A DNA stretch of 64,000 nt from Methylocystis sp. H62. Its GTDB lineage: Bacteria; Pseudomonadota; Alphaproteobacteria; Rhizobiales; Beijerinckiaceae. Each line of letters starts with the position of its first letter. The stretch's first letter is position 1. This document shows, one piece after another, positions 3,558 through 59,902 of this stretch. The notes under the pieces are model-generated. The model searched no databases and was not told where the DNA came from. It saw only the letters and a list, made by a program, of their open reading frames with translations. The translations under genes were made by a program, and so were the position numbers. Location: assembly GCF_015709515.1 (NCBI RefSeq), contig NZ_JADNQZ010000043.1:1-64000 (forward strand). The letters run 5' to 3'.

Positions 3558-3867
3558 TCAGCCTTCGTCCTCGGCAAACCTAGCTCTGAGGACGGCCATC
3601 CAGTTGCCCGCCGACGGACTCCGCGAATGGCGCAACGGACCGTAGGTGGCGGCGGCGGTCAGCGCCTGCGCGGCGATGTCGCCCGCTCGGGTCAAGAGGA
3701 GCGGGCTCGGCCTTCCTTGTCGTCGCCAGGGGACAAAGGTCAATGATTTTGACCAATGCATCGGAAAGAATGGCGAGTTGGGTCGTCGTATCAATCATGG
3801 CGTCCGCCTCCCTCGATCGGCAACGATAATCGCCAAATCCACGGCAGCGAAAGCCCACGCCTATCAC
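3558..3867 (-). pseudogene. small unknown ORF, apparently frameshifted
   Basis: Two overlapping minus-strand frames look like parts of one protein. One contains MIDTTTQLAILSDALVKIID and the other TRAGDIAAQALTAAATYG. A shift near 3700 would join them into about 70 residues ending at 3558. No family is recognised. It overlaps the repC stop by four bases, so it could be the last cistron of the rep transcript. Alternatively both frames are noise. Confidence 0.3.
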
Positions 3868-5231
3868 CCCGCTTGCTGCCGGTCGCGCGCCGCTCTTGCG
3901 GCCTTGCCGCGCAGCAGCGCCATCAAAACCGGCCCCAGCGAGAATTGCCCTTCCCGCGCTTTTCCGGTTAGCACCCGCAAATAGCCGCCGGCGGATTTGA
4001 TTTCCTCACCCCGCTGCAGGATTGCGGCGATGACGATCGAGGCGTCATGCTCGCCCAAAACGTTGAGCGCCTGTTTCCAGGCGTCAGGCGAGACGCCGAG
4101 CGCCGATCGGACAATCGTCGCAGCGTCGATGAGATCGCGCCAGCAGGAAATCTCGCCGTGTTTGCCGTAGTCGACGATGTCGGGACAGGCCTGCAGCACC
4201 ATGCCGAGGGGGTAGCTTCGCGTCGATGTCGCCTGTCGCGCCTCAATTCCGGGACTTGCCTCAGCTTCTGCACCCCCTACCCTTTCAGCTTCCGGCTTTT
4301 CCGGCATTGACCTGAGCGGTTCGGCCCTGCCTTTTTGAAGGCTAGGTTCAATATCAGGAATGTTTGTGATTTGATTCTGTATATGACGCTCAGTCTGGGA
4401 CTCATTGGCGCTTCTTTTTTGCTGTTTTACGTGAGTTTCCAATAGATTCTGGATTTTCGCTGCGAAGGCCGTCAATTCGCCCGCCAAAGCCTCCAGCTCG
4501 GCCCGCCCGAGACTGCGCGAGTAACGCGCCGAAAGGGCTTGGGAACGCCCATAGAGGCCTTCCCAGTCGCCAATCTCCTGCCCGTCGATCGAGACCCGCG
4601 CGAAGCGAACGCCCTCCTCCATGCCGGTCTCGATCATCTTGACGATGTCGCGCCGAACCAGCGTGATCCTTTCCCGCAGGAGAGCGATGGCGCGGTTCTC
4701 GACTCGCACTTCTTCGGCGAGGTTTTCGATCTCCGCTGCGCGCGCGATCAAGGGCGTCAGATCAAAGCCGAAGGCTTCCGCAATTTCTCCGCCCTGCCCT
4801 CGCCGCGCGAAACGTTTGCCGTTCGGCGAGTCGCGGCGGATGATGAGCCCCGCTTCGACAAGTGACGCGAGATGCCGACGCAACGTCGCCGGCGCCATGC
4901 CGTGAGCGCGGATAGAAAGCTCGCGGTTCGATGGGAACACCACAATTCCGGGAGTTGGCGAATCACTCTCCCCCTCGCCGACTTCGGCCTCGGGAAGGGT
5001 CAGCGCGGTTTCTTGGTGGAAGCTGAGCAAGGCGTGTAAAACTGAGAGCGCCCGGTCGGTGATGCCGAGCGGCTCTTTGGCTTCCGTGAGCGCGCGGAAC
5101 AGGCGCCACTTATGGACGACCGTCTCGGACGCGTCAGGTTTTGACGCGAAATCCCGCGTCGCCGCCTGCGCCGCCACCATGGCGAGCGACAACGGCCGCC
5201 GCCCGAAGGGTGTCGTTGAATATGTGCGCAT
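3864..5231 (-). CDS. repC: plasmid replication initiator RepC
   Basis: A 455-residue protein starting MRTYSTTPFGRRPLSLAMVA, the conserved RepC N-terminus, followed by VHKWRLFRALTEAK and the winged-helix segment FPSNRELSIRAHGMAPATLR. RepC is the replication initiator of repABC replicons and in studied members acts at an origin inside its own gene. It is the third gene of the operon. The 186-bp gap after repB holds a predicted counter-transcribed RNA on the opposite strand. The length is somewhat above the usual 400-440 residues; a polar Gln/Glu-rich linker (about 270-330) joins the DNA-binding part to the C-terminal helical domain. Confidence 0.93.
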   Translation of the reverse strand: MRTYSTTPFGRRPLSLAMVAAQAATRDFASKPDASETVVHKWRLFRALTEAKEPLGITDRALSVLHALLSFHQETALTLPEAEVGEGESDSPTPGIVVFPSNRELSIRAHGMAPATLRRHLASLVEAGLIIRRDSPNGKRFARRGQGGEIAEAFGFDLTPLIARAAEIENLAEEVRVENRAIALLRERITLVRRDIVKMIETGMEEGVRFARVSIDGQEIGDWEGLYGRSQALSARYSRSLGRAELEALAGELTAFAAKIQNLLETHVKQQKRSANESQTERHIQNQITNIPDIEPSLQKGRAEPLRSMPEKPEAERVGGAEAEASPGIEARQATSTRSYPLGMVLQACPDIVDYGKHGEISCWRDLIDAATIVRSALGVSPDAWKQALNVLGEHDASIVIAAILQRGEEIKSAGGYLRVLTGKAREGQFSLGPVLMALLRGKAARAARDRQQAG

Positions 5232-5285
5232 GATCTTTGCCTCGTTCAGGCAAAAGAAATCTGCTCGCCGAAACGGCGCCGACTC

Positions 5286-5314
5286 TTGACAGCGATTCGC
5301 GGAAGTGTGATTCT
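5286..5314 (+). promoter_or_regulatory. predicted sigma-70 promoter of the repABC antisense RNA
   Basis: TTGACA at 5286-5291 is followed after exactly 17 bp by GATTCT at 5309-5314, on the strand opposite repC. It sits in the repB-repC gap where repABC plasmids encode their counter-transcribed RNA. The -35 is perfect; the -10 matches four of six. Confidence 0.65.
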
Positions 5315-5320
5315 CTGAGT

Positions 5321-5376
5321 GCTAAGTCTGAGAAGGGCTTCCGGGCGGAGACGTTTTCGGGGGCCTTTTTCTTTTT
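5321..5376 (+). ncRNA. predicted counter-transcribed RNA (incA-type) controlling repC
   Basis: Transcription from the promoter at 5286-5314 should start near 5320 and end at the hairpin and T-run finishing near 5376, giving an RNA of about 55 nt complementary to the repC leader. repABC plasmids use such an RNA to limit RepC synthesis and set incompatibility. Placement, orientation and terminator fit; the exact ends are inferred. Confidence 0.65.
5336..5376 (+). terminator. rho-independent terminator of the antisense RNA
   Basis: GGCTTCC (5336-5342) can pair with GGGGGCC (5359-5365) with G-U pairs, followed by a T-rich tract TTTTTCTTTTT (5366-5376). Confidence 0.55.
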
Positions 5377-5417
5377 GCGAGTTTCCTTCTTTCCAGTATT
5401 TCTACGCAACAATCCGC

Positions 5418-6401
5418 TTACGCACGACGTGTGCGGAATTCCTCATAGAGATCGCTCAGGCGCTCAATGACATATGCGCCGAAGTCCGGCTCGGCCTTCT
5501 CATCGAAGCGGACGATGGTCGCCTTAGCGTCGCGGCTTATTCGCGCAAGCGCCGCGCCATCCGGGCGCTTCCAAACCTCGGCGCGGTCTGATGCGATTGA
5601 CTTGTCCGTAGCCGCTGTGAGCGCTCTTAGAAATCGAGTGTCAGAGTCAGCCGGAAAGTTCGGGTCGGAGAGGGCGGTTTCGACGCGAACAAGCGACTTG
5701 CGAGAGCGCAATAATTCGGCGAGCTGCAGCCAACGTCGTCGGCCAGCCCTTGGGGCCGGACCAATCGCGCGAACCAATGCCTCTGGCAGCGATCGAGCAA
5801 CGGTGATCATTTTCGAGAGGTCTGTTTTTTCCGTTGAGAGCGCCGCCATGATGACGCTGCGGTCGTGCCCGCTATCTTCGAGGGCTTTTGCGAACAGAGC
5901 GCGTTCGATGAAGGAAAGATCCCGGCGCGCAGTATTTTCAATTCCCTGCGCAATGATCAGCTGTCGATCATCGAGGTTGCGGACGACGGCTTTGATCTTG
6001 ATTCCGAGATCTTGCGCAGCCTTCAAACGTCGATGCCCATACGCTGCTTGATAGGAGCCGCCTTTCGTTGGATGCGGTCTTACGAGGATCGGCACCTCCT
6101 GTCCGTGAGAGCGGAGCGATTCCTTGAGCACCTGAAATTCGTGATCATCAGCGCTGGAAAGCCGGTCTCTTATGAACGAAACATCGATGCATTCAGGATC
6201 CAGTTCCACTACAGCAGCGCCTGTAGCGAGCGCCTCCTGCAGCGTCCGGGACTCTTCGGCCATCCGATCGAGCGTCAAGCTCATCGTCCTCACCGGGCCT
6301 GCAAGAACCCTGTCTGGGTTGGCGGCTTTGGAGGGTTCCGCGGAGTTGGCCGCGGCCAACTTGTTCTCGAGTAGCGATGTTATGATGTTCCGTCGGGTCA
6401 T
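5418..6401 (-). CDS. repB: plasmid partitioning protein RepB (ParB family)
   Basis: From the ATG at 6401 the protein is 327 residues (332 if the upstream ATG at 6416 is used). The ATG at 6401 overlaps the repA stop as ATGA, the usual coupling in repABC operons, so it is preferred. The ParB/Srx domain shows EVPILVRPHPTKGGSYQ and YGHRRLKAAQDLG, followed by ENTARRDLSFIERALFAKAL, the segment that contacts CTP and parS in ParB proteins. It should load on the parS palindromes at 6345-6360 (inside its own gene) and 7730-7745 and work with RepA in segregation. Confidence 0.93.
   Translation of the reverse strand: MTRRNIITSLLENKLAAANSAEPSKAANPDRVLAGPVRTMSLTLDRMAEESRTLQEALATGAAVVELDPECIDVSFIRDRLSSADDHEFQVLKESLRSHGQEVPILVRPHPTKGGSYQAAYGHRRLKAAQDLGIKIKAVVRNLDDRQLIIAQGIENTARRDLSFIERALFAKALEDSGHDRSVIMAALSTEKTDLSKMITVARSLPEALVRAIGPAPRAGRRRWLQLAELLRSRKSLVRVETALSDPNFPADSDTRFLRALTAATDKSIASDRAEVWKRPDGAALARISRDAKATIVRFDEKAEPDFGAYVIERLSDLYEEFRTRRA
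6345..6360. promoter_or_regulatory. parS: parS centromere site inside repB
   Basis: GTTGGCCGCGGCCAAC is a perfect 16-bp palindrome fitting the repABC parS consensus GTT-N4-GC-N4-AAC. It lies in the 5' part of repB. An identical copy lies upstream of repA. Confidence 0.85.
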
Positions 6402-7609
6402 GGAATCCGCCCCCATGTTCGAAGGATGAGCCCGAGAATTTCGCTGTTGACTGCTTCAAGCGACTCGATTGCGCGGTCGTAGGTCGCACGCCCGATCGCC
6501 CCGCGCTCGAGCTCGTAGAGCGATTGCTTCGTGAGGCCTGCGTCCGCAATGGCGGTCGACTTCCAAGCGGACGCCGCCAGAACCTCTTCGCCAAAAAGGC
6601 TGCGGAGAAGAGCCACTACTTGTGACTGCGGCCCGTCGTGCGGCTCGTGACGGGTGATTACATAGCGAATAAAATCGTGGCGCAGATCGCCGCCGGCCTT
6701 TCCCACTACCGCCATCAAGTCTGAGGCCATCAGCAAGAACTGCGACATGGAGGCAACGTCGACCATCTGGGGATGGATGGTGATCAGTAGCGCTGTCGCG
6801 GCGCAAAGGGCTCCAAGCGTCAGATAGCCAAGCTGCGGCGGACAATCGATCACGACGATGTCATAATCTGCCTCGACTTCCGCGAGCGCATGGCCAACGC
6901 GTTCGAAGAACATGCCGCCCGGCAGCCGCGAACCAAGAGCCAGCGCCTGCGGCGTTTCATGTTCAAACTCCATAAGCTCAAGATTGCCAGGAATAAGATC
7001 CAGTCCGTCAAAATAGGTCTTGCGAATGCAGTCCCGGACGGGATGACGGGCGTCTTCATACCGAATCGCCCCATAAATCGTGTCGCCTTCCTTGAGGTCG
7101 AATTCCGGCTGCAAGCCAAGCATGGCCGACAGAGATGCCTGAGGGTCAAGATCAACCCCAAGCACCCGAAATCCCGACATTGCTAAATATTGGGCAAGAT
7201 ACAGGCACGTCGTCGTTTTTGCCGATCCACCCTTAAAATTGACGCAGGCTATAGTTTGCATTTTTTCCCCAACGCGGCGGTGAGGCAAAACGGAAAGTGC
7301 TTCGCGTGGTTTCACCGTGGCAATGTGCCTGCGCAGCTCGTTAATTTGTACTAGGGAATAGGAGCGTCTCCCGGAGGCGCTTATTTCAGGCGCGGGCCCG
7401 ATCCCGTCGAGAGAGAGCTGCCGAAGATATCCATCCGACACATGCAAGAGTTTGGCGGCTTCCCCGGATGAAAAGGAGCGGAGTAATTTGTGACTGTCCG
7501 GCGGGAAAAGTCGGGAGCCGAGCGCCTGAAGCTGTTCGGACAACAGGCGAGCGTGGGCGGAAATTCGCGCATCTGATGGTGCTGTCGCCTCAACTGTCTG
7601 CGCGCCCAC
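6398..7609 (-). CDS. repA: plasmid partitioning ATPase RepA (ParA family)
   Basis: A 403-residue ParA-type ATPase. Residues 45-95 form a MerR-like winged HTH (SSGEAAKLLHVSDGYLRQLS) that in RepA proteins represses the operon. The deviant Walker A motif FKGGSAKTTT starts at about residue 125. The Walker A' aspartates are in GVDLDPQAS and Walker B is in YDIVVIDCPPQLGY. RepA drives segregation of RepB-parS complexes over the nucleoid. It is the first gene of repABC, transcribed leftwards from the region holding the 7730-7745 parS site. Length and motif order are typical. Confidence 0.94.
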   Translation of the reverse strand: MGAQTVEATAPSDARISAHARLLSEQLQALGSRLFPPDSHKLLRSFSSGEAAKLLHVSDGYLRQLSLDGIGPAPEISASGRRSYSLVQINELRRHIATVKPREALSVLPHRRVGEKMQTIACVNFKGGSAKTTTCLYLAQYLAMSGFRVLGVDLDPQASLSAMLGLQPEFDLKEGDTIYGAIRYEDARHPVRDCIRKTYFDGLDLIPGNLELMEFEHETPQALALGSRLPGGMFFERVGHALAEVEADYDIVVIDCPPQLGYLTLGALCAATALLITIHPQMVDVASMSQFLLMASDLMAVVGKAGGDLRHDFIRYVITRHEPHDGPQSQVVALLRSLFGEEVLAASAWKSTAIADAGLTKQSLYELERGAIGRATYDRAIESLEAVNSEILGLILRTWGRIP

Positions 7610-48185: not shown

Positions 48186-50198
48186 ATGTGCGGCATCTCC
48201 GGCTTTCTGACTTCCGGAACAAACCCGCGCGGGCTGAATGCGATTAAGGCGATGACCAACGCATTAGTTGCGCGCGGGCCTGATGGCGCAGGATATTGGA
48301 GCGATCCCGAAGGGCGGCTGTTTCTGGGGCACCGGCGTCTGTCCATCATAGATCTTTCGTCCGCAGGTCATCAACCGATGGAGTCTGCTAGCGGACGATT
48401 CGTGATGACTTTCAACGGCGAGATTTACAATCACGCGGCAATACGTTCGCAATTGGAAGATGTCGGCGCTGCTCCCAAATGGCGCGGACATTCGGACACT
48501 GAGACGTTCCTCGCCGCTATTGAGCATTGGGGTCTAGACGTCGCCCTGAAACGCGTCACGGGCATGTTTGCCATCGCGTTATGGGATATCGCTCGCCGCA
48601 CGCTGTATTTGGCGCGCGACCGTTTTGGCGAGAAGCCTCTTTATTACGGCTGGGTAGGCCATGGCGGTCAGGCCGCTTTTGCATTCGGTTCCGAGCTAAA
48701 GGCATTGCGCGCTTATCCCGGATTCGCCAATCCGGTGAGCCTTGAAGCTTTGGCGCTGTATTTGCGTTTCATGTATGTTCCCGCACCGTACAGCATCTAT
48801 GAGGGCGTCTACAAGCTGGAGCCGGGTTGCGTGCTCAGCATCTCAGGCGACGGGCCGCCTTCGCTTGCCCAGCCGCTGCGGCCGCCGGCGACGCATGGAG
48901 GAGCGACGCTGAGCCGTTGGTGGTCGCTCGACGCGCTGGTGGAATCGGGAGCGCAGCATCAATTTGAAAGCGAAGCAGACGCGATCGGGGCGCTGGAGCA
49001 AAGCCTGAGAGATGCAGTGAAGCTGCAATCAGTGGCGGATGTACCGCTGGGCGCTTTTCTCTCCGGCGGCGTCGACTCATCGACAATCGTGGCGCTCATG
49101 CAGCAACAAGCCGCGCGCCCGGTCAAAACGTTCACCGTCAGTTTCGAGGAGGCGGGCTTCGACGAAGCGCCTCACGCTCGGGCGGTCGCCCGCCATCTTG
49201 GCTCAGATCATTCCGAGCTGTACGTGACGGCGGCCGAAGCCTTGTCCGTCATTCCGAATTTGCCGGTGATCTATGATGAGCCGTTCGCAGACTCGTCTCA
49301 GATACCGACGCTTTTGGTTTGCCACGCCGCGCGCCAGCATGTCACTGTAGCGCTGTCCGGCGATGCCGGCGACGAGCTGTTTGGCGGCTATAATCGCTAC
49401 TTGTGGGGGCCGCGCCTTTGGAGCCGCCTGAGCAGGCTGCCTTACTCAGGGCGCCAGGCGCTTGGGGGAGCGCTCGCCGCGGTTCCGGAATCGGTCTTGG
49501 AACTTCTCAGTCGTCCCGTCAACGCAGTATTACCCGGAAGCCGTGGCATCGGCCACCTCGGTGAAAAGGCGCACAAGTTGGCTTCTCGGCTCCGCGGCGC
49601 ACACAACTTTGACGATTTTTACCGTAACCTAGTTTCCGAATGGCAGGATCCTTCGGAAATATTAAGCGCCGGCTGCGGCCGAATAGAGGGGCCGCTGAGT
49701 CTTCTGGACGACCCGTTGCCGACCCGAGGCGCGGAGCCACGTGAACTGCAGATGATGTACCGAGACAGCCTCACCTATCTGCCCGACGATATTCTATGTA
49801 AGGTGGACCGCGCCGCCATGGCGACGAGTCTGGAAACGCGCGTGCCTTTTCTGGATCAGCGCGTGGCTGAAGTCGCATGGCGACTTCCGCTCCACATGAA
49901 AATTCGTGACGGTCAAGGCAAGTGGGCGCTTCGCCAGGTGCTTCACAAATATGTGCCGCGCGAGCTGATCGAACGGCCGAAGGCCGGCTTCAGCATTCCC
50001 GTCGGCCAATGGTTGCGAGGACCATTGCGCGGCTGGGCGGAGAACCTATTGGACGAAACTCGGCTCGTGCATGAGGGATACTTCAAGCCTGCGCAGATTC
50101 GCGAAGCATGGAGACAACATTTGAGCGGTCGACGCGACCTAACGCCCAAACTATGGAGCATATTGATGTTTCAAGCCTGGTTGCGAGGGATTTCCTGA
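48186..50198 (+). CDS. asnB: asparagine synthetase, glutamine-hydrolysing (AsnB type)
   Basis: 670 residues. Cys2 (MCGISGFL) is the glutaminase nucleophile. FNGEIYNH and RGHSDTETFLAAIEHWG belong to the Ntn domain, and GAFLSGGVDSSTIVALM is the PP-loop of the synthetase domain. AsnB homologues of this length are common in EPS loci, where they are thought to amidate uronic acids or acyl groups of the polymer, although bona fide asparagine synthesis is possible. A uronic acid precursor is predicted from the TviB/TviC pair. It differs from the lasso cyclase at 56753, which lacks the Cys2 nucleophile. Confidence 0.88.
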   Translation: MCGISGFLTSGTNPRGLNAIKAMTNALVARGPDGAGYWSDPEGRLFLGHRRLSIIDLSSAGHQPMESASGRFVMTFNGEIYNHAAIRSQLEDVGAAPKWRGHSDTETFLAAIEHWGLDVALKRVTGMFAIALWDIARRTLYLARDRFGEKPLYYGWVGHGGQAAFAFGSELKALRAYPGFANPVSLEALALYLRFMYVPAPYSIYEGVYKLEPGCVLSISGDGPPSLAQPLRPPATHGGATLSRWWSLDALVESGAQHQFESEADAIGALEQSLRDAVKLQSVADVPLGAFLSGGVDSSTIVALMQQQAARPVKTFTVSFEEAGFDEAPHARAVARHLGSDHSELYVTAAEALSVIPNLPVIYDEPFADSSQIPTLLVCHAARQHVTVALSGDAGDELFGGYNRYLWGPRLWSRLSRLPYSGRQALGGALAAVPESVLELLSRPVNAVLPGSRGIGHLGEKAHKLASRLRGAHNFDDFYRNLVSEWQDPSEILSAGCGRIEGPLSLLDDPLPTRGAEPRELQMMYRDSLTYLPDDILCKVDRAAMATSLETRVPFLDQRVAEVAWRLPLHMKIRDGQGKWALRQVLHKYVPRELIERPKAGFSIPVGQWLRGPLRGWAENLLDETRLVHEGYFKPAQIREAWRQHLSGRRDLTPKLWSILMFQAWLRGIS

Positions 50199-51329: not shown

Positions 51330-52457
51330 TTGAAGGTGATCCTGTTCGCGAACACCGACTGGTATCTCTATAATTTCAGGCGCTCTCTTGCCGCCGCTCT
51401 CCGCGATGCGGGCCACGATCTTTTACTGGTTTCTCCCCCAGGGCCCTACGGCGAGAAGCTTCGCGCCGCGGGGTTTCGATGGATTCCGGCGCCGATGGAG
51501 CGCATGAGCCTCAATCCGCTGCGTGAACTGGCTTTGCTTAGCTGGCTGTGGCGCTTGATGCGCAAAGAGCGGCCTGACATCGTACACACCTTTACCATTA
51601 AATGCGCCGTTTACGGAGGGCTCATCGCACGCCTGGTGAAGGCGGGACGGCTCAATTCGGTCACAGGGATGGGCTATGTTTTCATTAGCGACTCCTTCAA
51701 GGCGCAGCTGCTACGGCCCTTGCTACGTTTATTGATGCGCGCTGCGTTCGGCGGCGATCGCGCGAGCTTAATCTTACAGAATCACGATGACGTTCAGTTA
51801 TTCGAAAAGGTCGGCATCGTTCCGTTGGAGCAGATTCGTCTAGTACGCAGTTCGGGCGTTGACTGCTCGCGCTTCCTTCCGCCGAATGACGAACCCGCTT
51901 CTGTCGGGGAACCTTTGCGCATTGTGTTCGCTGCGCGAATGTTGTGGGACAAGGGCGTTGGCGAGTTGGTCGAGGCGGCCCGGCTCCTCAAATCGGAGAG
52001 TCGGCGCCTTCGCTTCGTTCTCGCTGGCGATCCAGATCCTGGCAATCCGGCTGCGATAGCGGAAGAAACCCTACTTGGGTGGCAGGCGGAAGGGCTTGTT
52101 GAATGGCTCGGCCATGTAAGCGACATGCCTACTTTGCTGGCCGACGCGGGTATTGTGGTTTTGCCCAGCTATCGCGAGGGCTTGCCAAAAAGCCTCATCG
52201 AGGCGGCTGCATGCGCACGACCTCTGATTACGACTGATGCTCCGGGATGCCGAGAAGTGGTCACGCACGGCGTGAACGGACTGTTAGTACCCGTCCGTAA
52301 CGCTGAAGCGCTGGCAAGAGCCATCGCCATGCTGCAGGACGATCCGGAACTCGCTCGGCGTCTCGGAGAGGCTGCACGTGTAAAGGCCTTAATTGAATTC
52401 GACGAGCGTGTCGTGATCGCGCAGACGCTCGCTGTCTATCACGAAATTGCTGTTTAG
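51330..52457 (+). CDS. glycosyltransferase family 4
   Basis: 375 residues from a TTG at 51330, placed directly after the EpsG stop where the conserved KVILFANTDWYLYNFRRSLA begins; the frame is open further upstream but overlaps that gene. HTFTIKCAVYGGLIARLVKA, RIVFAARMLWDKGVGELVEA and YREGLPKSLIEAAACARPLI are the GT4 landmarks; the protein resembles PglA/WbaX-like enzymes acting early on undecaprenyl-linked sugars. The last four bases overlap the convergent recombinase gene. Confidence 0.87.
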   Translation: MKVILFANTDWYLYNFRRSLAAALRDAGHDLLLVSPPGPYGEKLRAAGFRWIPAPMERMSLNPLRELALLSWLWRLMRKERPDIVHTFTIKCAVYGGLIARLVKAGRLNSVTGMGYVFISDSFKAQLLRPLLRLLMRAAFGGDRASLILQNHDDVQLFEKVGIVPLEQIRLVRSSGVDCSRFLPPNDEPASVGEPLRIVFAARMLWDKGVGELVEAARLLKSESRRLRFVLAGDPDPGNPAAIAEETLLGWQAEGLVEWLGHVSDMPTLLADAGIVVLPSYREGLPKSLIEAAACARPLITTDAPGCREVVTHGVNGLLVPVRNAEALARAIAMLQDDPELARRLGEAARVKALIEFDERVVIAQTLAVYHEIAV

Positions 52458-53446
52458 CCGGCTTGATCTTTTCTTCGGATGGCGGCACGAGCTTTTTCAA
52501 GCAATGCGCTGAGGTTGGCGTTTTCAACATATCGGCTAACGACATTCATCGACTTCCACCCTCCGGCCTGCATAATTGGCAGGATGGTGAGTCCTGAAAC
52601 GATCATGTCCTGAGCGGCGCCGACGCGCATTGAATGACCTGATAGCCTCGTGACGATCTGGGGAGGAAGTCCCGCTGTGCATGCTGTCCGCTTCAAGATC
52701 CGGTTGATTGTGAAAGGATGTAGTGCGGATTCGGCAATGGATTCGCTACGGACAGAACGAAAAATATAGCCTGTCTTGATCCGCGCCGCGCCTAGCCAAT
52801 CCTGCACGAATGCATTCGACTCCGGCGAAACATACCCGAGGCGCCCATTCCCGTACGGATCGTTTTTTGATCGGCGGATCAGAACTTGAATTGATCCATC
52901 AGTTGATGTGCTCAAGTCCTCCACGCGAAGCGCGACAAGTTCAGAGCGACGACAAAGCGTGTCATAACCAAGAGCCATTATCGCACGGTCGCGTTTCCCG
53001 GTGAGAGAGTTCGGGCACGCCGCAATCAGCCGATCGCGCAATTCGCTGGTCAGGCCTAGCGCCTGTTGGGGTCTCGCGGAGCGCCGTCGGAACGCACGTC
53101 GCATAGCAATTGTCACGTCCTCGTCTACGACGGGGTTTGTGAGGCGCAGAAGTTTGTGAACCTTGCTGACAGCCGCCAGTCGACGCTTAAGTGTGGCAGC
53201 TGAGAAGCGCTCCGCTTCATGCTCGACATAGGCCGCGACCGTTTCCGGGCTCGCAGGAAGCGTCCGTCGCCGTGCTTCCGCGCACCATTTTTCGAAGGTC
53301 GCCATGTCGGCGCGATACGATCGGAGGGTATTGTCAGAGTATGCACCTTCGATCCGAGAAAGTGCAGAACGCCAATCCTTGAGATCGGAGACGAGAGTGG
53401 ATCTATAGTTCGACACCTGATTCCCAATTGGTCTGATTGGACTCAC
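52454..53446 (-). CDS. tyrosine recombinase / integrase
   Basis: 330 residues. Core-binding domain at about 30-105 (SDNTLRSYRADMATFEKWCA). Catalytic residues: Arg166 in LCRRSEL, Lys194 in RRSKND, His271/Arg274 in SGHSMRVG, Trp297 in GGW in the usual His/Trp position, and Tyr306 in SRYVENA. It is unrelated in detail to the recombinase at 1834. A divergent XRE regulator starts 38 bp upstream with a 14-bp palindrome between. It separates the EPS locus from the lasso cluster and may have brought in one of them; no att sites were identified. Confidence 0.9.
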   Translation of the reverse strand: MSPIRPIGNQVSNYRSTLVSDLKDWRSALSRIEGAYSDNTLRSYRADMATFEKWCAEARRRTLPASPETVAAYVEHEAERFSAATLKRRLAAVSKVHKLLRLTNPVVDEDVTIAMRRAFRRRSARPQQALGLTSELRDRLIAACPNSLTGKRDRAIMALGYDTLCRRSELVALRVEDLSTSTDGSIQVLIRRSKNDPYGNGRLGYVSPESNAFVQDWLGAARIKTGYIFRSVRSESIAESALHPFTINRILKRTACTAGLPPQIVTRLSGHSMRVGAAQDMIVSGLTILPIMQAGGWKSMNVVSRYVENANLSALLEKARAAIRRKDQAG

Positions 53447-53479
53447 TTACGGGTCTATATAGACCACTAGCGCCGTAAG
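53445..53479. promoter_or_regulatory. palindromic operator candidate between recombinase and XRE genes
   Basis: GGTCTATATAGACC (53452-53465) is a perfect 14-bp palindrome. An outer pair, CTTACGG (53446-53452) and CCGTAAG (53473-53479), brackets it. The location between two divergent starts suits a binding site of the XRE regulator or recombinase. Confidence 0.55.
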
Positions 53480-53483
53480 GTCA

Positions 53484-53729
53484 ATGATCACTTCGACACA
53501 GATTCGATCCGCTCGCGCTGCTCTTCGTTGGTCCGTCATCGAACTTTCTACACACGCCAGAATAAGCGTGCAGACGATTAAGAGATTCGAGGCCTCCGAA
53601 GGCGTGCCATCTAGTCGGTCATCGACCCTTTTTGAGGTGCAGAAGGCGTTCGAAGCGGCTGGAATCGAATTCATCGGCGCCCCAGACGAAGGGCCTGGCG
53701 TACGCCTCTGGCGCAAAGCGAATCGCTAA
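53484..53729 (+). CDS. XRE-family helix-turn-helix regulator
   Basis: 81 residues. QIRSARAALRWSVIELSTHA and RISVQTIKRFEASEGVP form the HTH_3 domain. The C-terminal part (STLFEVQKAFEAAGIEFIGA) is the pattern of small alphaproteobacterial XRE repressors. It is divergent from the recombinase gene with a palindrome between, so it probably represses both. It is also the closest regulator gene to the lasso cluster, but no palindrome copy was noticed near 54261. Confidence 0.85.
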   Translation: MITSTQIRSARAALRWSVIELSTHARISVQTIKRFEASEGVPSSRSSTLFEVQKAFEAAGIEFIGAPDEGPGVRLWRKANR

Positions 53730-54260: not shown

Positions 54261-54289
54261 TTGACAAAGCTTCCGCTGGGAAATAGAGT
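54261..54289 (+). promoter_or_regulatory. predicted promoter of the lasso-type precursor gene
   Basis: TTGACA at 54261-54266, 17 bp spacer, TAGAGT at 54284-54289. This would start transcription near 54296, leaving a short leader of about 27 nt with GAGGA as the ribosome site before the ATG at 54323. Confidence 0.6.
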
Positions 54290-54322
54290 TTACGCTATTA
54301 TCTCCAGATTTGAGGAATCAAC

Positions 54323-54529
54323 ATGTCCGGGCCCGACGGGAATCCTTCGCCAGAGAGAGACGTGGCGGAGTCAGAACCGAGCATGACGTCTCGTAAAAAA
54401 TATGTCGCGCCGGCGCTCTCGCGGTACGGTTCGCTCGCCGAGCTTACAAAAAACAGTGGGGTTAAGTACGGGAACGATGGTCAAGGCATGGGGTGCGGCG
54501 AACAAAAAGACACAAGTTGCCCACGTTGA
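54323..54529 (+). CDS. lasso-type RiPP precursor peptide
   Basis: A 68-residue peptide starting at an ATG 5-8 nt after GAGGA (a second Met at residue 21 lacks a ribosome site). Residues 27-42 match the lasso leader rule YxxPxLxxxG...LT: Tyr27, Pro30, Leu32, Gly36, Leu41, Thr42. The core region is Gly-rich and polar and contains Asp52, Cys58 and Cys66, ending in CPR. With Thr42 at position -2 the core would begin at Asn44 and Asp52 would be core residue 9, the right place for a 9-residue macrolactam ring. Ser45 or Gly46 as residue 1 would give rings of 8 or 7. All maturation genes follow on the same strand. Confidence 0.8.
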   Translation: MSGPDGNPSPERDVAESEPSMTSRKKYVAPALSRYGSLAELTKNSGVKYGNDGQGMGCGEQKDTSCPR

Positions 54530-54552
54530 CTGATTGGGCGATTCGAGACATT

Positions 54553-54585
54553 GGAGAGAGCGCACCCGACGGGTGCGCTCTCTCC
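54553..54585 (+). terminator. strong hairpin after the precursor gene (attenuator-like)
   Basis: GGAGAGAGCGCACCCG and CGGGTGCGCTCTCTCC are perfect 16-bp complements around a single A. No T-run follows, so it may stabilise the precursor transcript or partly end transcription rather than act as a full rho-independent terminator. It lies between the precursor and the maturation genes. Confidence 0.7.
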
Positions 54586-54775
54586 GCGTTGAGCGATCTC
54601 GATTAAGGCCGACGGTCTCGTCCTTTCAGGTCTAACGCGGTTTGCAGGAAGTCGTGACGAATAAAAATGGCGCGCGCGGCATAATCGTCGGCGTCGCTTG
54701 CGCTTGACTTTTCGACTTTGGCGCGTGTCATCGACGCGGATGGCGGCGAGAAAGTCGAACATGGGCGGTCTTTTA

Positions 54776-55080
54776 TGAATCTATCAACTGACTCTTGGGT
54801 AGCGGCGACAAGCAATCAGGCGTCCTGTGAGCTAGAAGGCGAGGCTGTGATCTTGAGCCTCGAAGATTGCGTCTATTACGGATTGAACGAGGTCGGATTC
54901 GCTGTCTGGGCGTTAATCCAGACGCCAGCGTGCGTAGTCGACATACGCGACCAAGTGGCGCGAAGGTTTGAGGTCGAACTCGATGTTTGCGAGAAAGACA
55001 TCTTGAACCTGCTCGAACAGCTCAGAGACGCCGGCCTGGTGCAAGAGGTTCCAGCGCCAGAAAAAACCGCTAGTGGATGA
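54776..55080 (+). CDS. PqqD-like RiPP recognition protein (lasso B1)
   Basis: 101 residues from ATG 54776 (the frame is open to a TTG at 54718). EGEAVILSLEDCVYYGLNEV, FAVWALIQTPACVVDIRDQV and DVCEKDILNLLEQLRDAGLV follow the PqqD winged-helix fold. In lasso systems this B1 protein, or RRE, binds the leader peptide and hands it to the B2 protease. It is the first gene after the hairpin and is followed by kinase, B2 and C genes. Its length is typical of discrete RREs. Confidence 0.85.
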
Positions 55081-55310
55081 GGACGCCACGAGCGGTAGGC
55101 CGGTTTTTAACGGCAAGCAGGCGTTCTGCCCGTTCACCTCCGCCCATACCACGGCGCTGGGCCATGAACTCAGCAAAGGCTTGAAGCACTGCGCTAATGG
55201 AGAGTAACCTCCAGCACTACTCATTATCCCTGGATTGGAAAAGTAAGCAGGTTCTTGACAGTCAAGGCGCAGATCGCCAGCGTGTCGCGAAAAATGAGGT
55301 TCTCTTGAAC

Positions 55311-56237
55311 ATGCGCCGGTTCCAAGTATACGGGCTCAGCATCGCCAGCGACATCGATCTTTTGCTACAGGGCGGCTCCGATGCGGCGCCGCCAGCAATT
55401 AACATTGCGCGTGCGCCTCCTGACTTTTTCAATAGTTTTAGATCGCATCGGGCGTCTGTGGGCGAACCCAAATGGTATCGACACGAGCCTCTTCCGGATG
55501 GGTCGAGCTATCTCAGTTGGAATGAGCATTTTGATTTTTTCATTGCTTCCGACGGTCGTTCGATCCTCTGCGACCCGCGCGGTGACATTTCCGAAGCGTA
55601 CGTTAGCTTCCTGGTGAGCTTTGCATTGAGCTTCGCATTGTTGCGAATCCGCGACGAGGCGCTTCAGCTTCATGCAACTGTCGTAGAAGCTGGAGGTCTG
55701 GCTTTTGGCTTTCTGGGAGATAGTGGTGCAGGTAAATCAACGTTAGCGTCATATTGCATGAGCAGGGGCGCTCGTTTGGTGACAGATGATCTATTGCGAG
55801 CAAATTTGTGCGACCGATTTGTCATTGCTCACCCAGGCCCGCCAAGGATAAAACTATTTCCCGAGACCGCCGCCGTCCTTTTGCCGGAAGAAATTTGCGA
55901 CGTCCTGACGAGCCCTTTTTCGAAGAAGCAGCTCATTGCTCCCGCGGCGAATCAGAGGGTAGATAAAGGTGTCCCCCTAAAAGCTCTATACTTGCTGGTT
56001 GAGCCAGAAAATAGTGACGATGGTTATGCTGTGAGTGTTGAAAAGTTGCATAGTAGGGATGCTACATTGATTTTACTCGGGTCGACGTTTAATTCGGTAG
56101 CGCAGACCGAAGAAGGGCTCGTACAACAACTTCAAGTCACCGGGCAGGTCTTGTCGAGAATCCCAGTGTTTCGACTGTGTTATCCTCGGCGATTTGAGGT
56201 CCTTAGCGCTGTATACGAGCGCATGGTTGGGCAATAG
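55311..56237 (+). CDS. HPr-kinase-like protein of the lasso cluster
   Basis: 308 residues from ATG 55311, where the family's usual start (MRRFQVYGLSIASDI) begins. An upstream ATG at 55197 would add 38 unrelated residues. Walker A is FLGDSGAGKST at about 133-144, followed by LVTDDLLRANL, like the HprK/P kinase domain. In Bacillales and Proteobacteria, HprK-related kinases in lasso clusters phosphorylate a serine of the precursor, usually at its C-terminus. Here the precursor ends in Arg, so the target is uncertain. It sits between the B1 and B2 genes, with 3 bp separating it from B2. Confidence 0.78.
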   Translation: MRRFQVYGLSIASDIDLLLQGGSDAAPPAINIARAPPDFFNSFRSHRASVGEPKWYRHEPLPDGSSYLSWNEHFDFFIASDGRSILCDPRGDISEAYVSFLVSFALSFALLRIRDEALQLHATVVEAGGLAFGFLGDSGAGKSTLASYCMSRGARLVTDDLLRANLCDRFVIAHPGPPRIKLFPETAAVLLPEEICDVLTSPFSKKQLIAPAANQRVDKGVPLKALYLLVEPENSDDGYAVSVEKLHSRDATLILLGSTFNSVAQTEEGLVQQLQVTGQVLSRIPVFRLCYPRRFEVLSAVYERMVGQ

Positions 56238-56240
56238 AAA

Positions 56241-56663
56241 ATGCAAAAGCTGACGAAGTTTTTGTCTTTGAAGACGCAAGATCAGGCGCTTTTGCTCAAT
56301 GCTGCACTGATAATGCTCGCATGCAGGCTGGGCCTGCATCTCCTTAGATTCGAAGACCTTCGGATCTTAACGTCGTGCGTAAGAACAGAAAAATTCGTCC
56401 CAATCGCGAAGCTAATCTGGGCGACCCAGATCGCACGGCAAGTTACGCCTAATCCAACCTGCTTGGTTCGGGCGTTGGCGGCCAGTAGGTTACTGGCCAA
56501 ATACGGTTACAAATCCACACTTCATATCGGCGTGAGACGAGGAGACAGTGGGTTTGAGGCGCACGCTTGGCTTGAACATGACGGCAACGCAATAATCGGC
56601 AGCGTTGAGGCGCCAGGCTTCACGCGGCTTTGCTCATGGGAGATCGGGCGCGGAGCGGCTTGA
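56241..56663 (+). CDS. lasso peptide biosynthesis B2 protein (transglutaminase-like leader protease)
   Basis: 140 residues. NPTCLVRALAASRLLAKYGY holds the nucleophile Cys74, FEAHAWLEHDG holds His108 and a candidate Asp114, and YKSTLHIGVRR lies between. This is the transglutaminase-like fold of McjB C-terminal domains and stand-alone B2 proteins, which cut off the leader. The length is normal for B2. Gene order B1-kinase-B2-C and tight spacing support the assignment. Confidence 0.88.
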   Translation: MQKLTKFLSLKTQDQALLLNAALIMLACRLGLHLLRFEDLRILTSCVRTEKFVPIAKLIWATQIARQVTPNPTCLVRALAASRLLAKYGYKSTLHIGVRRGDSGFEAHAWLEHDGNAIIGSVEAPGFTRLCSWEIGRGAA

Positions 56664-56752
56664 CGCTTTGCCCTGAGGTTGCTGGGAATGCGTTTCGCTC
56701 TTAGGGATCCGAGTTTTTCCACGTAGGGAAATCAAATTATCTAGGATGGGCA

Positions 56753-58546
56753 ATGAGCGGATTTGTTGCGTTGTGGAACACGGATGGAACGCCGATCGAC
56801 GAAGCCCTCCTGATAAAAATGGAGAATTTTCTTTCTTCGAGGGGCCCTGACGAACAACGCCACGCGATTTTGGGGGCAAACCGCAATGTCGGGCTTGCAC
56901 ACGCCGCCTTTTATACAGCATCGGAATCTCATTTGGAGCGCCAGCCTTGCACTGTTTATGGCGACGCATGGCTGGCTGGCGATATTCGCATTGATGCGCG
57001 CGAGCAGCTCTGGAAAGAACTTGGCGCTGACCCCTCCAAAAAACATTTGCCAACCGATGCTGAGATGGCGTTGCGGGCCTACCATCGCTGGGGCCCCAAA
57101 CTGGTTGAGCGCCTGATTGGCGATTATTCTTTCGTGATTTGGGATGCGAAAACGGAGCAAATCCACGCCGTCCGCGACCATTTAGGAGTGCGGCCGTTGT
57201 TTTATGCCCGCGCCGGGCAGTGCTGGATTTGTAGTAATTCACTCGAATGCGTCAGACTGCATCCAGAGATCGGCGACGAACTTGATGACATTTGGATCTC
57301 AAATTTCTTAGCGGTTCACTTCAAGGTCGAATTCGAAAGAACGGCATACCGTCAGATTAAAAGGCTTCCGCCGGCTTATATTCTAGAACTGTCGCGTTGT
57401 GGAAAAACAAAGAAAAAATATTGGGAATTTGATGTCGGAGAACCGATTTATTACAAAAAACGTGAACAATATCACGAGCATTTTCGGGAGCTCGCAAAAA
57501 CGGTCATCGGGGACCGAATTCGAATTGAGAGAGTCGGGAGTGAGATGAGCGGCGGGCTCGACTCTACGACTATGGTCGCGTTTATCCGAGAAATTCTTGG
57601 AAAGGGCGCGAACAACATCGTTGTGCAGACCAATTATAGCGAGACGCTGATTTACGACGACGAGCCGAGGTATGCGACTGCTGCGGCGGATCACATAGGG
57701 ATTCCGATCACTCTCGAAAACACGGACGAGATGTTTTATGACCCTCAATGGTGGCAGAAGGGCCTAATGCCGCCCGAGCCCCATGAGGTTGTTTTAAATC
57801 ACTCGGTGTGGATCGATGCGATAAAGCGAGGGCCGCTGAACGACGTTCGAGTATTGTTCGTTGGTCATGGAGCCGATGAGGCGCTCAATTACGCAGATTT
57901 CAGACCCTATTTGCTGTGGCTTCTCAACACAGGCCGTCTCACAAGACTCGGTTCGGCCCTTTATTCTACGCTGCGCGCAAGGGGCTTGGGGGATGCGCTT
58001 CGGAAGATCGGGACGGCGCTTACGCCCCGAATGACGCCGCCTCCCGTGCAAGAATACCCCCCTTGGGTGCGGAGTAAAGTGCTTGATGATTGCTCAAACT
58101 CCGGCGCGCCGCATCCATGGCGTCCTCATACTGTTGCGCATCTTCGTCACCCAGTTTGCCAGGGCGTGTTCGAATCCTTCGATCCCGGCATCGGAGGTTG
58201 GCTGGTCGAAGCGGTATATCCATATCTCGATGTCCGCATGATGCAATTTCTGTCGTCAGTGCCCGTCGTGCCGTGGTGTCATAGGAAGGCCTTGATCCGC
58301 GAAAGCATGACTGGCATGCTGCCGGAATCTGTATTGAGAAGGGAAAAGACCTACTTGTCCGCCGTCCCTTCGAATAGAGCCAGGGAACGGCACCCGTTTC
58401 CTCCTATCTTACAGAGTCCAGAGTTGTCTCGATACGTTGACATGTCGAAAATTCCGGCGGAATGGCCGACGGGTCTTATGCCAAGTCGTATGATTCTACG
58501 GTTGCTTGCTCTCCAGCACTGGCTGTCAGCGCGGCAACAGCAATAG
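56753..58546 (+). CDS. lasso macrolactam synthetase (asparagine-synthetase-like C protein)
   Basis: 597 residues. The N-terminal Ntn-like domain starts MSGFVALWNTDG: the catalytic Cys2 of glutaminase AsnB is Ser, as expected for McjC-type cyclases that do not need ammonia. The synthetase domain has the PP-loop SEMSGGLDSTTMVAFI (Ser266 onward) and GADEALNYADFRPYLLWLLN. C proteins adenylate the side-chain carboxylate of core Asp/Glu and close the ring with the core N-terminus. It starts 89 bp after B2. The lack of Cys2 separates it from the EPS AsnB at 48186. Confidence 0.88.
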   Translation: MSGFVALWNTDGTPIDEALLIKMENFLSSRGPDEQRHAILGANRNVGLAHAAFYTASESHLERQPCTVYGDAWLAGDIRIDAREQLWKELGADPSKKHLPTDAEMALRAYHRWGPKLVERLIGDYSFVIWDAKTEQIHAVRDHLGVRPLFYARAGQCWICSNSLECVRLHPEIGDELDDIWISNFLAVHFKVEFERTAYRQIKRLPPAYILELSRCGKTKKKYWEFDVGEPIYYKKREQYHEHFRELAKTVIGDRIRIERVGSEMSGGLDSTTMVAFIREILGKGANNIVVQTNYSETLIYDDEPRYATAAADHIGIPITLENTDEMFYDPQWWQKGLMPPEPHEVVLNHSVWIDAIKRGPLNDVRVLFVGHGADEALNYADFRPYLLWLLNTGRLTRLGSALYSTLRARGLGDALRKIGTALTPRMTPPPVQEYPPWVRSKVLDDCSNSGAPHPWRPHTVAHLRHPVCQGVFESFDPGIGGWLVEAVYPYLDVRMMQFLSSVPVVPWCHRKALIRESMTGMLPESVLRREKTYLSAVPSNRARERHPFPPILQSPELSRYVDMSKIPAEWPTGLMPSRMILRLLALQHWLSARQQQ

Positions 58547-58789
58547 AGACGCTCGTAAGGACTAGCATGGTCAACTATCGCCTGGGGATCATTCTCGAAG
58601 CGGCCGGAGTTCGGCCGTCGCCTTGCGATTTTCAGGAGGCGCGGGCGCCCAGTCGCAAATGAGCCGCCGGAGAGCAGCAACCTCATGCAAGGGATGTATT
58701 ATTTGGGCATCCCTATTTGACGTTCCGGCTGGCTTAAGCTTTTATATTCTGTCATCATCTATCCGCGCCTTGAAGCGGCGTTAAGGCAT

Positions 58790-59902
58790 ATGAGCCAAGA
58801 CTTGCCCAACTTTAATAACTTAAGCAACATTCCACCTCTCCAGACGGCTCGGTGGATTATAAAGCAAGATCCACATGTCTCATTCTTGATCATTATCTTG
58901 ATTTTTGTTCTCAGGTCAGGGGTTGGATTTTACTACGGCGCAGATGGCGATGTAATTGCAATAGCCGAAGCCTTCCCGACGCCGCTGGCTGATTACAAGG
59001 GTCTTTCCATCATTAGCCCTATTATTGCCCATTACGTTGGAATCCACACAGAATTGGAATGGTGTATCCTACATATTATTTTGGTTTGCGTCATTTTCTA
59101 TTTAGCCTGGCGCCTTGTTCAACGCCAATTTCCTGAAGCTTCGACGCGGCAATTTATTTGGATCGCACTTTGTGGGTCCGGGGCTGGGGTTGTGGCCATT
59201 GGCAAAATTGGTCATTACGACATTTGGATGTTTGCAGCCTCCATGCTTCTTCTCTTCGATAGAAACTGGCGTGGAGCCGTTCTTTCAGGGCTTTTGTTTG
59301 GTTTTACGAACGTCGAACAGGGTCTGGTTGCGCTTGCTGCTTTAGCGATATGCGCATACGCTATCGACAGGGAGTTTATCAAGATTATATGCTTATCGGT
59401 ATTGTCTATGTTATTTGCGCGAGCCATTCTGGAGTTATGGTATCTACACAATAACGTTGACGTTCACACGAGAGCTAGCGTTGTTAGCGGTTGGCTACGT
59501 CTCTCATTAAGGGGCTTCTTGCAAGCTTGGCCAGTTCAGATTTATAGCTGGTTTTCAGCTTCGTGGGTGTTAGTTTTATACATGATTTCAAATGGCGGCC
59601 ATGCTACTCGTGCCTTAATAGCCAGCGGCGCTATTGTGCTGCCCGCGCTAGCAACATTAATTACTACAGATGGCACAAGGGTATTCGCCGTGACATCGTT
59701 TCCTTCCTTCTTACTCCTAATCAGATATATGAGCGCTGACACAAGCATGGAGGCAGTTCGTGTTCACCTTGCTATATTTACAGTTTCAATGATGCTGATA
59801 TCACCGGGTGTCATGACGTGGGTCGGGGGCTCTGTTGAGCAGCCGTACGCACAGTTACTTGATATCATTCTCACGTTGGGGGGGCTGGCCCATTTACGGT
59901 AG
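58790..59902 (+). CDS. polytopic membrane protein, unknown
   Basis: 370 residues with about 9 hydrophobic helices (such as FLIIILIFVLRSGVGFYYGA and LHIILVCVIFYLAWRLV). The short motif YYGADGDVIAIAEAFPTPLA after the first helix is reminiscent of acidic loops in GT-C or EpsG-like enzymes, but no family can be assigned. It follows the cyclase by 243 bp, so it may belong to the lasso cluster as an export or immunity function, or to the arabinose-lipid module downstream as a transferase. AT content is moderately high. Confidence 0.5.
   Translation: MSQDLPNFNNLSNIPPLQTARWIIKQDPHVSFLIIILIFVLRSGVGFYYGADGDVIAIAEAFPTPLADYKGLSIISPIIAHYVGIHTELEWCILHIILVCVIFYLAWRLVQRQFPEASTRQFIWIALCGSGAGVVAIGKIGHYDIWMFAASMLLLFDRNWRGAVLSGLLFGFTNVEQGLVALAALAICAYAIDREFIKIICLSVLSMLFARAILELWYLHNNVDVHTRASVVSGWLRLSLRGFLQAWPVQIYSWFSASWVLVLYMISNGGHATRALIASGAIVLPALATLITTDGTRVFAVTSFPSFLLLIRYMSADTSMEAVRVHLAIFTVSMMLISPGVMTWVGGSVEQPYAQLLDIILTLGGLAHLR

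What the first reader, a model, noticed from the sequence alone, without database searches (positions are those of the whole stretch)
54261..58546. Lasso-type RiPP cluster on a plasmid beside an EPS locus
The order is precursor, hairpin, B1 (PqqD-like), HPr-kinase-like protein, B2 and cyclase C, all on one strand. The leader matches YxxPxLxxxG...LT, the B2 Cys and His are present, and the cyclase has lost the AsnB Cys2. These are established lasso hallmarks. The core, with two cysteines and an unusual candidate first residue, matches no lasso peptide I know.
Basis: partly seen in the sequence, partly recalled or inferred. Interest (0 to 1): 0.85.

Follow-up and report, generated by a model that had tools for sequence, protein, structure and literature searches.

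The report
Kinase-equipped lasso peptide cluster on plasmid
A bacterial plasmid carries a complete gene set predicted to make a small knotted ("lasso") peptide that probably also receives a phosphate; the machinery is of a known kind, but the peptide itself matches none found in the searches made here.

Summary
In 4.3 kb on one strand lie a promoter-like site, a 68-aa precursor, a strong hairpin, B1 (RRE), an HPr-kinase-like protein, B2 and cyclase C. Diagnostic residues are present and largely conserved among relatives. The contig carries repABC and EPS genes. This is a lasso cluster with a precursor kinase: a new member of a known kind.

Relatives give the core. With Tyr at -17, Asp falls at +9 in 46 of 71 precursors, so the window core is N1-SGVKYGN-D9-GQGMGCGEQKDTSCPR. 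Asn1 is unusual but known from metanodin (PMC12670498); 3 other precursors here share it. Both cysteines lie outside the ring, as in class IV lassos; this is unique among the 71.

The cyclase is a deep lone sister of a Reyranella/same-genus clade. About half the precursors end in [KR]T plus up to two residues, a candidate kinase site; the window (KDTSCPR) does not. One transporter query found none on the contig. A lasso-type nucleotidyltransferase sits on another contig beside a copy of the gene that follows the cyclase. No product has been shown.

The parts
54261..54289 (+). sigma-70-like promoter TTGACA-17-TAGAGT
   Evidence: 10 of 12 consensus matches; 7 such sites found in the region against 3.1 expected in shuffles, so weak on its own; position fits the precursor start
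54312..54316 (+). ribosome-binding-site-like GAGGA, 6 nt before ATG 54323
   Evidence: read from the sequence
54323..54529 (+). lasso precursor A (68 aa): leader 54323-54451 ending YVAPALSRYGSLAELTK (Y-17, P-14, L-12, T-2), predicted core NSGVKYGNDGQGMGCGEQKDTSCPR
   Evidence: NF033521 21.5 bits over cut-off 19; cleavage register and D9 by comparison with 71 precursors
54553..54585 (+). strong RNA hairpin between precursor and B1 (15-bp stem, 3-nt loop), no T-run; possible attenuator or transcript stabiliser
   Evidence: z -6.6, 0 of 200 shuffles as stable
54775..55080 (+). B1, PqqD-like leader-binding protein (RRE)
   Evidence: PF05402 60.5 bits over cut-off 23.4; lasso_PqqD_Bac 60.7 bits, below that model's cut-off of 80; closest solved chains 9x90_B (lasso PqqD family chaperone) and 5v1u (TbiB1); Tyr conserved in 77 of 83
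55311..56237 (+). HPr-kinase-like precursor kinase K (longer reading from 55197 possible)
   Evidence: TIGR04352 29.8 bits (cut-off 200), PF07475 24.3 bits (cut-off 33.3), both below cut-off; H, G, G, G, K, S, D, D motif; model pLDDT 91; Foldseek: PEPCK first, HPrK/P from rank 30
56241..56663 (+). B2, transglutaminase-like leader peptidase
   Evidence: NF033537 83.6 bits (cut-off 33), PF13471 68 bits (cut-off 26); Cys74, His108 in 100 of 100
56753..58546 (+). C, asparagine-synthetase-like lasso cyclase
   Evidence: best NCBIfam match lass_lactam_cya, 242 bits (below its cut-off 525), next asn_synth_AEB 153 bits; PF00733, PF13537 over cut-off; SGGLDS loop; no Cys2
58790..59902 (+). 370-aa protein, multi-pass membrane by eye; membership in the cluster uncertain
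   Evidence: no family match above chance; the only other copy found in 61 genomes lies beside a lasso-type nucleotidyltransferase in the same genome

Best explanation
The locus makes a phosphorylated lasso peptide. B1 binds the leader of A. The HPr-kinase-like protein phosphorylates the unprocessed precursor, most likely at Thr21/Ser22 of the core tail. B2 cuts after Lys(-1), one residue past Thr(-2). C adenylates Asp9 and closes the amide to the amino group of Asn1, with the 16-residue tail threaded. Cys15 and Cys23 then form a tail-tail disulfide (class IV-like). Shown here: gene content, conserved catalytic residues, leader register, the Asp9 preference in relatives. Inferred: phosphorylation and its site, order of steps, threading, disulfide, and any outside function. 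Expected monoisotopic masses: ring only 2569.074; ring plus disulfide 2567.059; ring, disulfide and one phosphate 2647.025 Da. The confidence below is for a lasso pathway with a 1-9 ring; for phosphate on the tail and for the disulfide I would give about 0.5 each, and the first rival is a variant within this explanation.
For: Family models for A, B1, B2 over cut-off. B2 Cys and His in 100 of 100 aligned sequences; cyclase Gly268 and Asp270 in 108 of 108; kinase His, P-loop Gly-Lys and second Asp in 85 of 85, its other motif residues in 73 to 81 of 85. Thr(-2) in 69 and Asp at +9 in 46 of 71 precursors from 58 loci. Kinase found by HMM in the loci of 62 of the 71 precursors. The kinase has the H-G-G-G-K-S-D-D motif reported for lasso precursor kinases (PMC10368454, passages) and a fold of the PEPCK/HPrK kind. 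Asn1 precedent: metanodin (PMC12670498, abstract and passages). Class IV precedents LP2006, pandonodin, felipeptins (PMC9266682, passages).
Against: No homologue of the core was found in the searches done, so the window's own register rests on leader spacing. The [KR]T ending (at most two residues after it) of 37 of 71 precursors is absent in the window (KDTSCPR; none of its last three residues is S or T). The kinase scores below every curated cut-off, and its HPrK/P fold matches are weak (query-normalised TM 0.27 to 0.36; PEPCK 0.54 to 0.60 among the first 25). The cyclase is below the lasso cyclase cut-off, and the EPS Asn synthetase at 48186 also scores 200 bits with that model, though its best match is another (549 bits). 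No transporter on the contig by the one query tried. In 15 of 71 precursors the first Asp from +7 on falls at +10 or +11, and in 7 there is none at +7 to +12, so the Asp9 rule is not universal. No expression data.
Confidence: 0.85

Rival explanations
1. Lasso pathway as above, but the kinase acts on a ring residue (Ser2, by analogy with BsfK on Ser3 of BsfA) or is inactive, so the mature product has no tail phosphate.
For: BsfK phosphorylates core Ser3; BsfA ends in Asp (PMC10368454, passages). The window has Ser at core position 2 and lacks S/T in its last three residues.
Against: Core position 3 is Gly in the window. Among the precursors Thr is enriched near the C-terminus (48 of 71 with T in the last three, shuffled mean 21.0, 0 of 2000 shuffles as high).
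Confidence: 0.25
2. The cluster is decaying or a partial copy: it lacks a transporter and a nucleotidyltransferase, and the precursor tail has drifted from the commonest ending, so it makes little or no product.
For: No convincing match to a lasso-associated ABC transporter of the genus on the 88.5-kb contig; nucleotidyltransferase on another contig; long cyclase branch 0.96.
Against: The five genes are open and keep catalytic residues; promoter-like and ribosome-binding sites precede A; some lasso clusters lack D, for example three of the Group I clusters of PMC12670498 (section 7 read).
Confidence: 0.12
3. The product is not a lasso: the Asn-synthetase-like enzyme makes another linkage on a PqqD-bound peptide, and the leader likeness is shared RRE ancestry.
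For: B1, B2 and kinase homologues occur without a cyclase in the 11.5-12 kb fetched of L174, L175, L177, L183. The cyclase is below the lasso cyclase cut-off.
Against: B2 passes the lasso-specific cut-off; the best NCBIfam match of C is the lasso cyclase model (242 bits, next 153); the acceptor Asp spacing is lasso-typical. I did not test C in a tree that holds Asn synthetases.
Confidence: 0.05

Closest known systems
Bradymonas bsf cluster (BsfA/B1/B2/C/D/K/N), PMC10368454 (passages and section 25 seen)
   Same: split B1/B2, cyclase, HPrK-like kinase; same leader spacing Y-17, P-14, L-12; same kinase motif
   Different: window has Thr, not Ile, at -2, Asn1, no D and no nucleotidyltransferase found in cis; phosphosite Ser3 has no counterpart
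Paeninodin and relatives (PadeK, ThcoK, SyanK, PsmK), PMC9266682 (passages seen)
   Same: precursor kinase within a lasso cluster; for PadeK, phosphorylation before maturation
   Different: those are modified on a C-terminal Ser; the window ends CPR
Metanodin, PMC12670498 (abstract, passages and section 7 seen)
   Same: Asn as the ring-forming first residue, Thr(-2)
   Different: metanodin's cluster is of the classical ABC kind; the paper does not mention a kinase (0 occurrences)
Class IV lasso peptides LP2006, pandonodin, felipeptins, PMC9266682 and PMC13352647 (passages seen)
   Same: two Cys, both outside the ring
   Different: disulfide only predicted here; sequence likeness not tested
Uncharacterised Reyranella-like, Acidobacteriota and same-genus clusters found here (among L041-L087; L015, L017, L022, L042)
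   Same: B1, K, B2, C set; 31-39% identical in Reyranella-like loci; core ..G.....DG in 28 of all 71 precursors, window included
   Different: gene order (for example K-B2-C-B1-A in L043, B1-B2-C-A-K in L072, against A-B1-K-B2-C); [KR]T ending common; no Cys pair outside the ring

Membership tests
lasso peptide biosynthetic cluster | precursor with leader motif and Thr(-2) | tested here: met
   (NF033521 over cut-off)
lasso peptide biosynthetic cluster | acidic residue at core 7-9 | tested here: met
   Asp9 with register fixed by Y-17/T-2
lasso peptide biosynthetic cluster | leader-binding RRE plus transglutaminase-like peptidase with Cys-His | tested here: met
lasso peptide biosynthetic cluster | AsnB-like cyclase with ATP loop, without the glutaminase Cys | tested here: met
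   window residues; the curated lasso cyclase cut-off is not reached (242 of 525 bits)
lasso peptide biosynthetic cluster | threaded macrolactam product | not testable with these tools
   needs MS/MS, ion mobility or NMR
lasso precursor kinase (PadeK/BsfK type) | H-G-G-G-K-S-D-D motif | tested here: met
   motif list from PMC10368454
lasso precursor kinase (PadeK/BsfK type) | HPrK-type fold | tested here: inconclusive
   Foldseek hits PEPCK (TM 0.54-0.60 among the first 25) and HPrK/P (E 1.5e-6 but TM 0.27-0.36 by query); sequence matches HPrK/P over 65 residues (E 2e-4)
lasso precursor kinase (PadeK/BsfK type) | C-terminal Ser (PadeK type) or core Ser3 (BsfK type) substrate | tested here: not met
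   window core ends CPR and has Gly3
class IV lasso peptide | two Cys both outside the ring | tested here: met
   Cys15 and Cys23 if the ring is 1-9
class IV lasso peptide | tail-tail disulfide formed | not testable with these tools
   needs product

The most novel reading that the evidence does not exclude
A large, multi-phylum branch of lasso clusters (Alphaproteobacteria, Acidobacteriota, Gemmatimonadota, Planctomycetota) uses HPrK-like kinases on a near-C-terminal Thr after Lys/Arg, in part of the loci with a nucleotidyltransferase as well. The window encodes its deepest alphaproteobacterial member, a phosphorylated class IV lasso with Asn1, a combination I did not meet in the papers seen. 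The nucleotidyltransferase step may be supplied from another locus of the same genome, next to a twin of the membrane protein gene behind the cyclase.
Probability: 0.3. Interest if true: 0.6.

Novelty: new member of a known kind. Interest (0 to 1): 0.42.

Why it matters
Predicted Thr-type kinase sites across phyla would give a simple rule for which residue lasso kinases modify, a point on which the reported sites (C-terminal Ser, core Ser3) differ. A lasso with Asn1, a tail Cys pair and a kinase is a compact, testable expression target. Otherwise it is one more cryptic lasso cluster.

Tried and rejected
Searches that led nowhere: single-sequence cyclase scan of genome contigs (48 pattern matches, none confirmed); precursor against 200 genomes (52 of 200 genomes, the own one included, match at E <= 1; the best other match, E 0.0062, covers query residues 3-31 at 48% identity with a stop inside; I treated none as a homologue); precursor against plasmids (2 records at E = 10); 16 kb of the window against plasmids by megablast (none).

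Considered and rejected: that the hairpin is an intrinsic terminator (no T-run). That hairpins after the precursor are a family trait: stems of 10 bp or more follow 6 of 71 precursors against 20 of 400 random segments. That the kinase is a true HPr kinase: far below the HPr-kinase cut-offs.

Against the Thr-site idea: the 9 precursors whose locus showed no kinase by HMM have Thr in the last three residues too, 9 of 9. Four of them lie on short or cut stretches (L052, L089); for the other five, in L051, L057, L060 and L064, no kinase or B2 homologue was found in the locus. So the tie between kinase and Thr cannot be decided. The control cores were picked by me by hand from the candidates (13 of the 19 loci without B1 gave any; 14 cores, 13 different): none ends in [KR]T plus at most two residues, 4 of 13 have S or T in the last three. 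They look like fused-B clusters, so lineage and kinase are confounded.

Rows dropped: 76 motif rows gave 73 different cores (3 duplicates); 2 were dropped by eye as spurious (one each in L044, L085), leaving 71. The filter misses likely precursors, for example in L013 (13-aa core) and L018 (Trp for Tyr, other spacing); 34 of the 92 loci gave none. The counts treat related loci as separate, and the 92 include two public contigs (L056, L069) that repeat L015 and L022.
Full report
What is there. Between 54261 and 58546, all on the + strand, lie a promoter-like TTGACA-17-TAGAGT, GAGGA six bases before ATG 54323, a 68-aa precursor (54323-54529), a 15-bp perfect hairpin (54553-54585; z = -6.6 over 101 nt, no T-run), B1 (54775-55080), an HPr-kinase-like gene, B2 (56241-56663) and cyclase C (56753-58546). 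The kinase reading starts at 55197, but homologues align from ATG 55311, which I take as the start. The lasso leader and B2 pass curated NCBIfam cut-offs; PqqD, Transglut_core3, GATase and Asn_synthase pass Pfam's. The kinase models, lasso_PqqD_Bac and lass_lactam_cya do not reach their cut-offs.

Is it more than chance. A strict leader motif, [YW]xxPx[LIVM]xxxGxxxx[LIVM]Tx, occurs once in six frames of the 88.5-kb contig, exactly here; 30 order-2 Markov simulations gave no hit in 29 and one in 1. In alignments that include the window, B2 Cys74 and His108 are present in 100 of 100; the kinase His, P-loop Gly-Lys and second Asp in 85 of 85, with its two other Gly in 73 and 74, Ser in 81 and first Asp in 80 of 85; cyclase Gly268 and Asp270 of SGGLDS in 108 of 108; and a B1 Tyr in 77 of 83. 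An RRE Tyr is suspected to contact Thr(-2) (PMC10368454, section 25 read); that this is the same Tyr is my inference. Position 2 of the cyclase is Ser here and in 58 of 108; Cys is not among the six commonest states.

Replicon and surroundings. The window is part of contig C43 (88.5 kb) of a 4.54-Mb draft genome of 59 contigs. RepA, RepB and RepC at 3867-7609 pass their cut-offs, and an Rfam S-element, which I recall as a repABC element, lies beside repC, so a repABC replicon is well supported; circularity is not shown. EPS-type genes lie at 12-52 kb: a Wzc-like autokinase domain (147 bits, cut-off 108) and EpsG (148, cut-off 30.1) pass cut-offs; a flippase, a glycosyltransferase and the Asn synthetase at 48186 (over the asn_synth cut-off) are clear or weaker matches. 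A tyrosine recombinase (Pfam over cut-off) and a small HTH gene (below cut-off) lie just upstream of the cluster. B2 occurs once in this genome; 9 of 101 genomes searched have it, 8 of them in this genus with the own genome counted. One same-genus contig (G011:C33, L015) has the length and the precursor of a public contig titled Methylocystis sp. (L056), so the genus is probably Methylocystis.

Relatives and the core. A cyclase alignment gave 80 loci, the best of 145 confirmed. With 11 loci from near genomes and the window, 92 loci were scanned for precursors: 76 rows, 73 different, 71 after dropping two spurious, from 58 loci. With Tyr fixed at -17, Thr is at -2 in 69 of 71, and the first Asp between +7 and +12 is at +9 in 46, +10 in 13, +8 in 3, +11 in 2, and absent in 7. 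The window reads YVAPALSRYGSLAELTK | NSGVKYGND GQGMGCGEQKDTSCPR: Asn1, Asp9. First residues vary: A 16, T 15, S 13, Q 6, G 6, R 5, K 5, N 4, H 1. The other Asn1 rows are L054, L087 and L098. Metanodin was reported in 2025 as the first lasso peptide with Asn as the ring-forming first residue (PMC12670498, abstract and passages seen), so this residue is precedented. The shape ..G.....DG is shared by 28 of 71, the window included. Four of 71 have two Cys; only the window has both outside the ring.

Evolution. In a cyclase tree of 93 rows (quick method, SH-aLRT only) the window, on a branch of 0.96, is sister to 22 rows of Reyranella-like, same-genus and Methylocystaceae loci; the group of 23 has support 99. 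Best identity is 36%. Gene order differs: A-B1-K-B2-C here, K-B2-C-B1-A in L043 and similar Reyranella-like loci, B1-B2-C-A-K in L072 and similar Acidobacteriota loci.

Kinase. The AlphaFold2 model (30 sequences) has mean pLDDT 91. Foldseek ranks phosphoenolpyruvate carboxykinases first (E 3e-9, query TM 0.54-0.60 among the first 25), then HPrK/P from rank 30 (E 1.5e-6, query TM 0.27-0.36); I recall the two as related folds. In paeninodin-type clusters the reported site is the C-terminal Ser, in bsf it is core Ser3 (PMC9266682 and PMC10368454, passages seen). Here, 37 of 71 precursors end in [KR]T plus at most two residues (shuffled-tail mean 5.5, 0 of 2000 as high), 48 have Thr in the last three (mean 21.0, 0 of 2000), and Ser is not clearly enriched (17, mean 13.3, 267 of 2000). 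Three kinase-bearing loci of the same class, outside the 71, end in LTFS, the C-terminal Ser pattern, again with Asp9 (L161, L181, L186). The window ends KDTSCPR and meets none of these rules; Thr21 or Ser22 is my inferred site. Of the 71, the 9 precursors without a kinase in view also have Thr in the last three, 9 of 9, which weakens the link or reflects cut contigs. My searches for such a Thr rule in print (lasso peptide with HPr kinase; with kinase, phosphorylat, paeninodin; with nucleotidyltransferase, kinase, threonine, Acidobacteri; with C-terminal threonine) returned nothing that states it in what I saw, which is listings and passages or single sections of five papers; the library is open-licence only, and the original paeninodin paper was not held.

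Missing pieces. One ABC-transporter query from the genus has only chance-level matches on C43 (E 0.32 and 0.45), while at E <= 1e-5 it matches 46 of 133 sequences searched, C43 not among them. A nucleotidyltransferase query (from L018) matches 38 of the same 133, not C43. In this genome a PF14907 nucleotidyltransferase (121 bits, cut-off 31.2) lies on 7-kb contig C13, next to a copy (92% identical protein) of the 370-aa membrane protein gene that follows the window's cyclase. Among 61 genomes that protein was found only here, twice. One end of C13 and a stretch near its other end share near-identical DNA with C43, so the two may be neighbours or on one plasmid. I infer, weakly, that the membrane protein and nucleotidyltransferase belong to the pathway.

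Verdict. A genuine lasso cluster of the kinase-bearing, split-B kind with a core unmatched in the searches made: a new member of a known kind.

Noticed in passing
G000 contig C13 (L199:3349-5842, - strand): PF14907 nucleotidyltransferase (49% identical to those of lasso loci L016/L023) beside a copy (92% identical protein) of the membrane protein at window 58790-59902; C13 shares near-identical stretches with C43.
   Followed up: partly
L015, L042, L017, L022 (same genus or Methylocystaceae): Lasso clusters with a radical SAM gene beside the precursor (SPASM just over or under cut-off) and hydrophobic tails holding LRTS; an unusual gene in a lasso setting.
   Followed up: partly
L063, L072-L075, L079, L089, L091, L093, L108, L115: With the leader register fixed, the first Asp from +7 on lies at core +10 or +11 in 15 of 71 precursors, beyond the usual 7-9 ring; either cleavage differs or rings are larger.
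   Followed up: no
L016:5296-5457 and L023:7112-7273: Same-genus precursors with Val at -2, one Cys, and Glu8 as the likely acidic ring residue (SGCSGRRE...).
   Followed up: no
window 58663-58705: A 39-42-bp stretch just after the cyclase recurs at 85-95% identity in four other genomes of the genus, without its surroundings; nature unknown.
   Followed up: partly
L174, L175, L177, L183 (same order): B1, B2 and kinase homologues together with no cyclase in the 11.5-12-kb stretch fetched; possibly another RiPP type.
   Followed up: no
L110, L117: Precursor-like ORFs, two in each, with Gly/Met-rich cores such as GGSGMDMEMGMMGMGKMQLDRMA beside kinase and cyclase homologues.
   Followed up: no
window 5229-5291, - strand: Rfam S-element (51.2 bits, gathering 47) beside repC.
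   Followed up: no
window 52454-53729: Tyrosine recombinase and a small HTH gene directly upstream of the lasso cluster, a possible mobility module; G+C over 54-59 kb is 0.51-0.55 against 0.573 for the contig.
   Followed up: no
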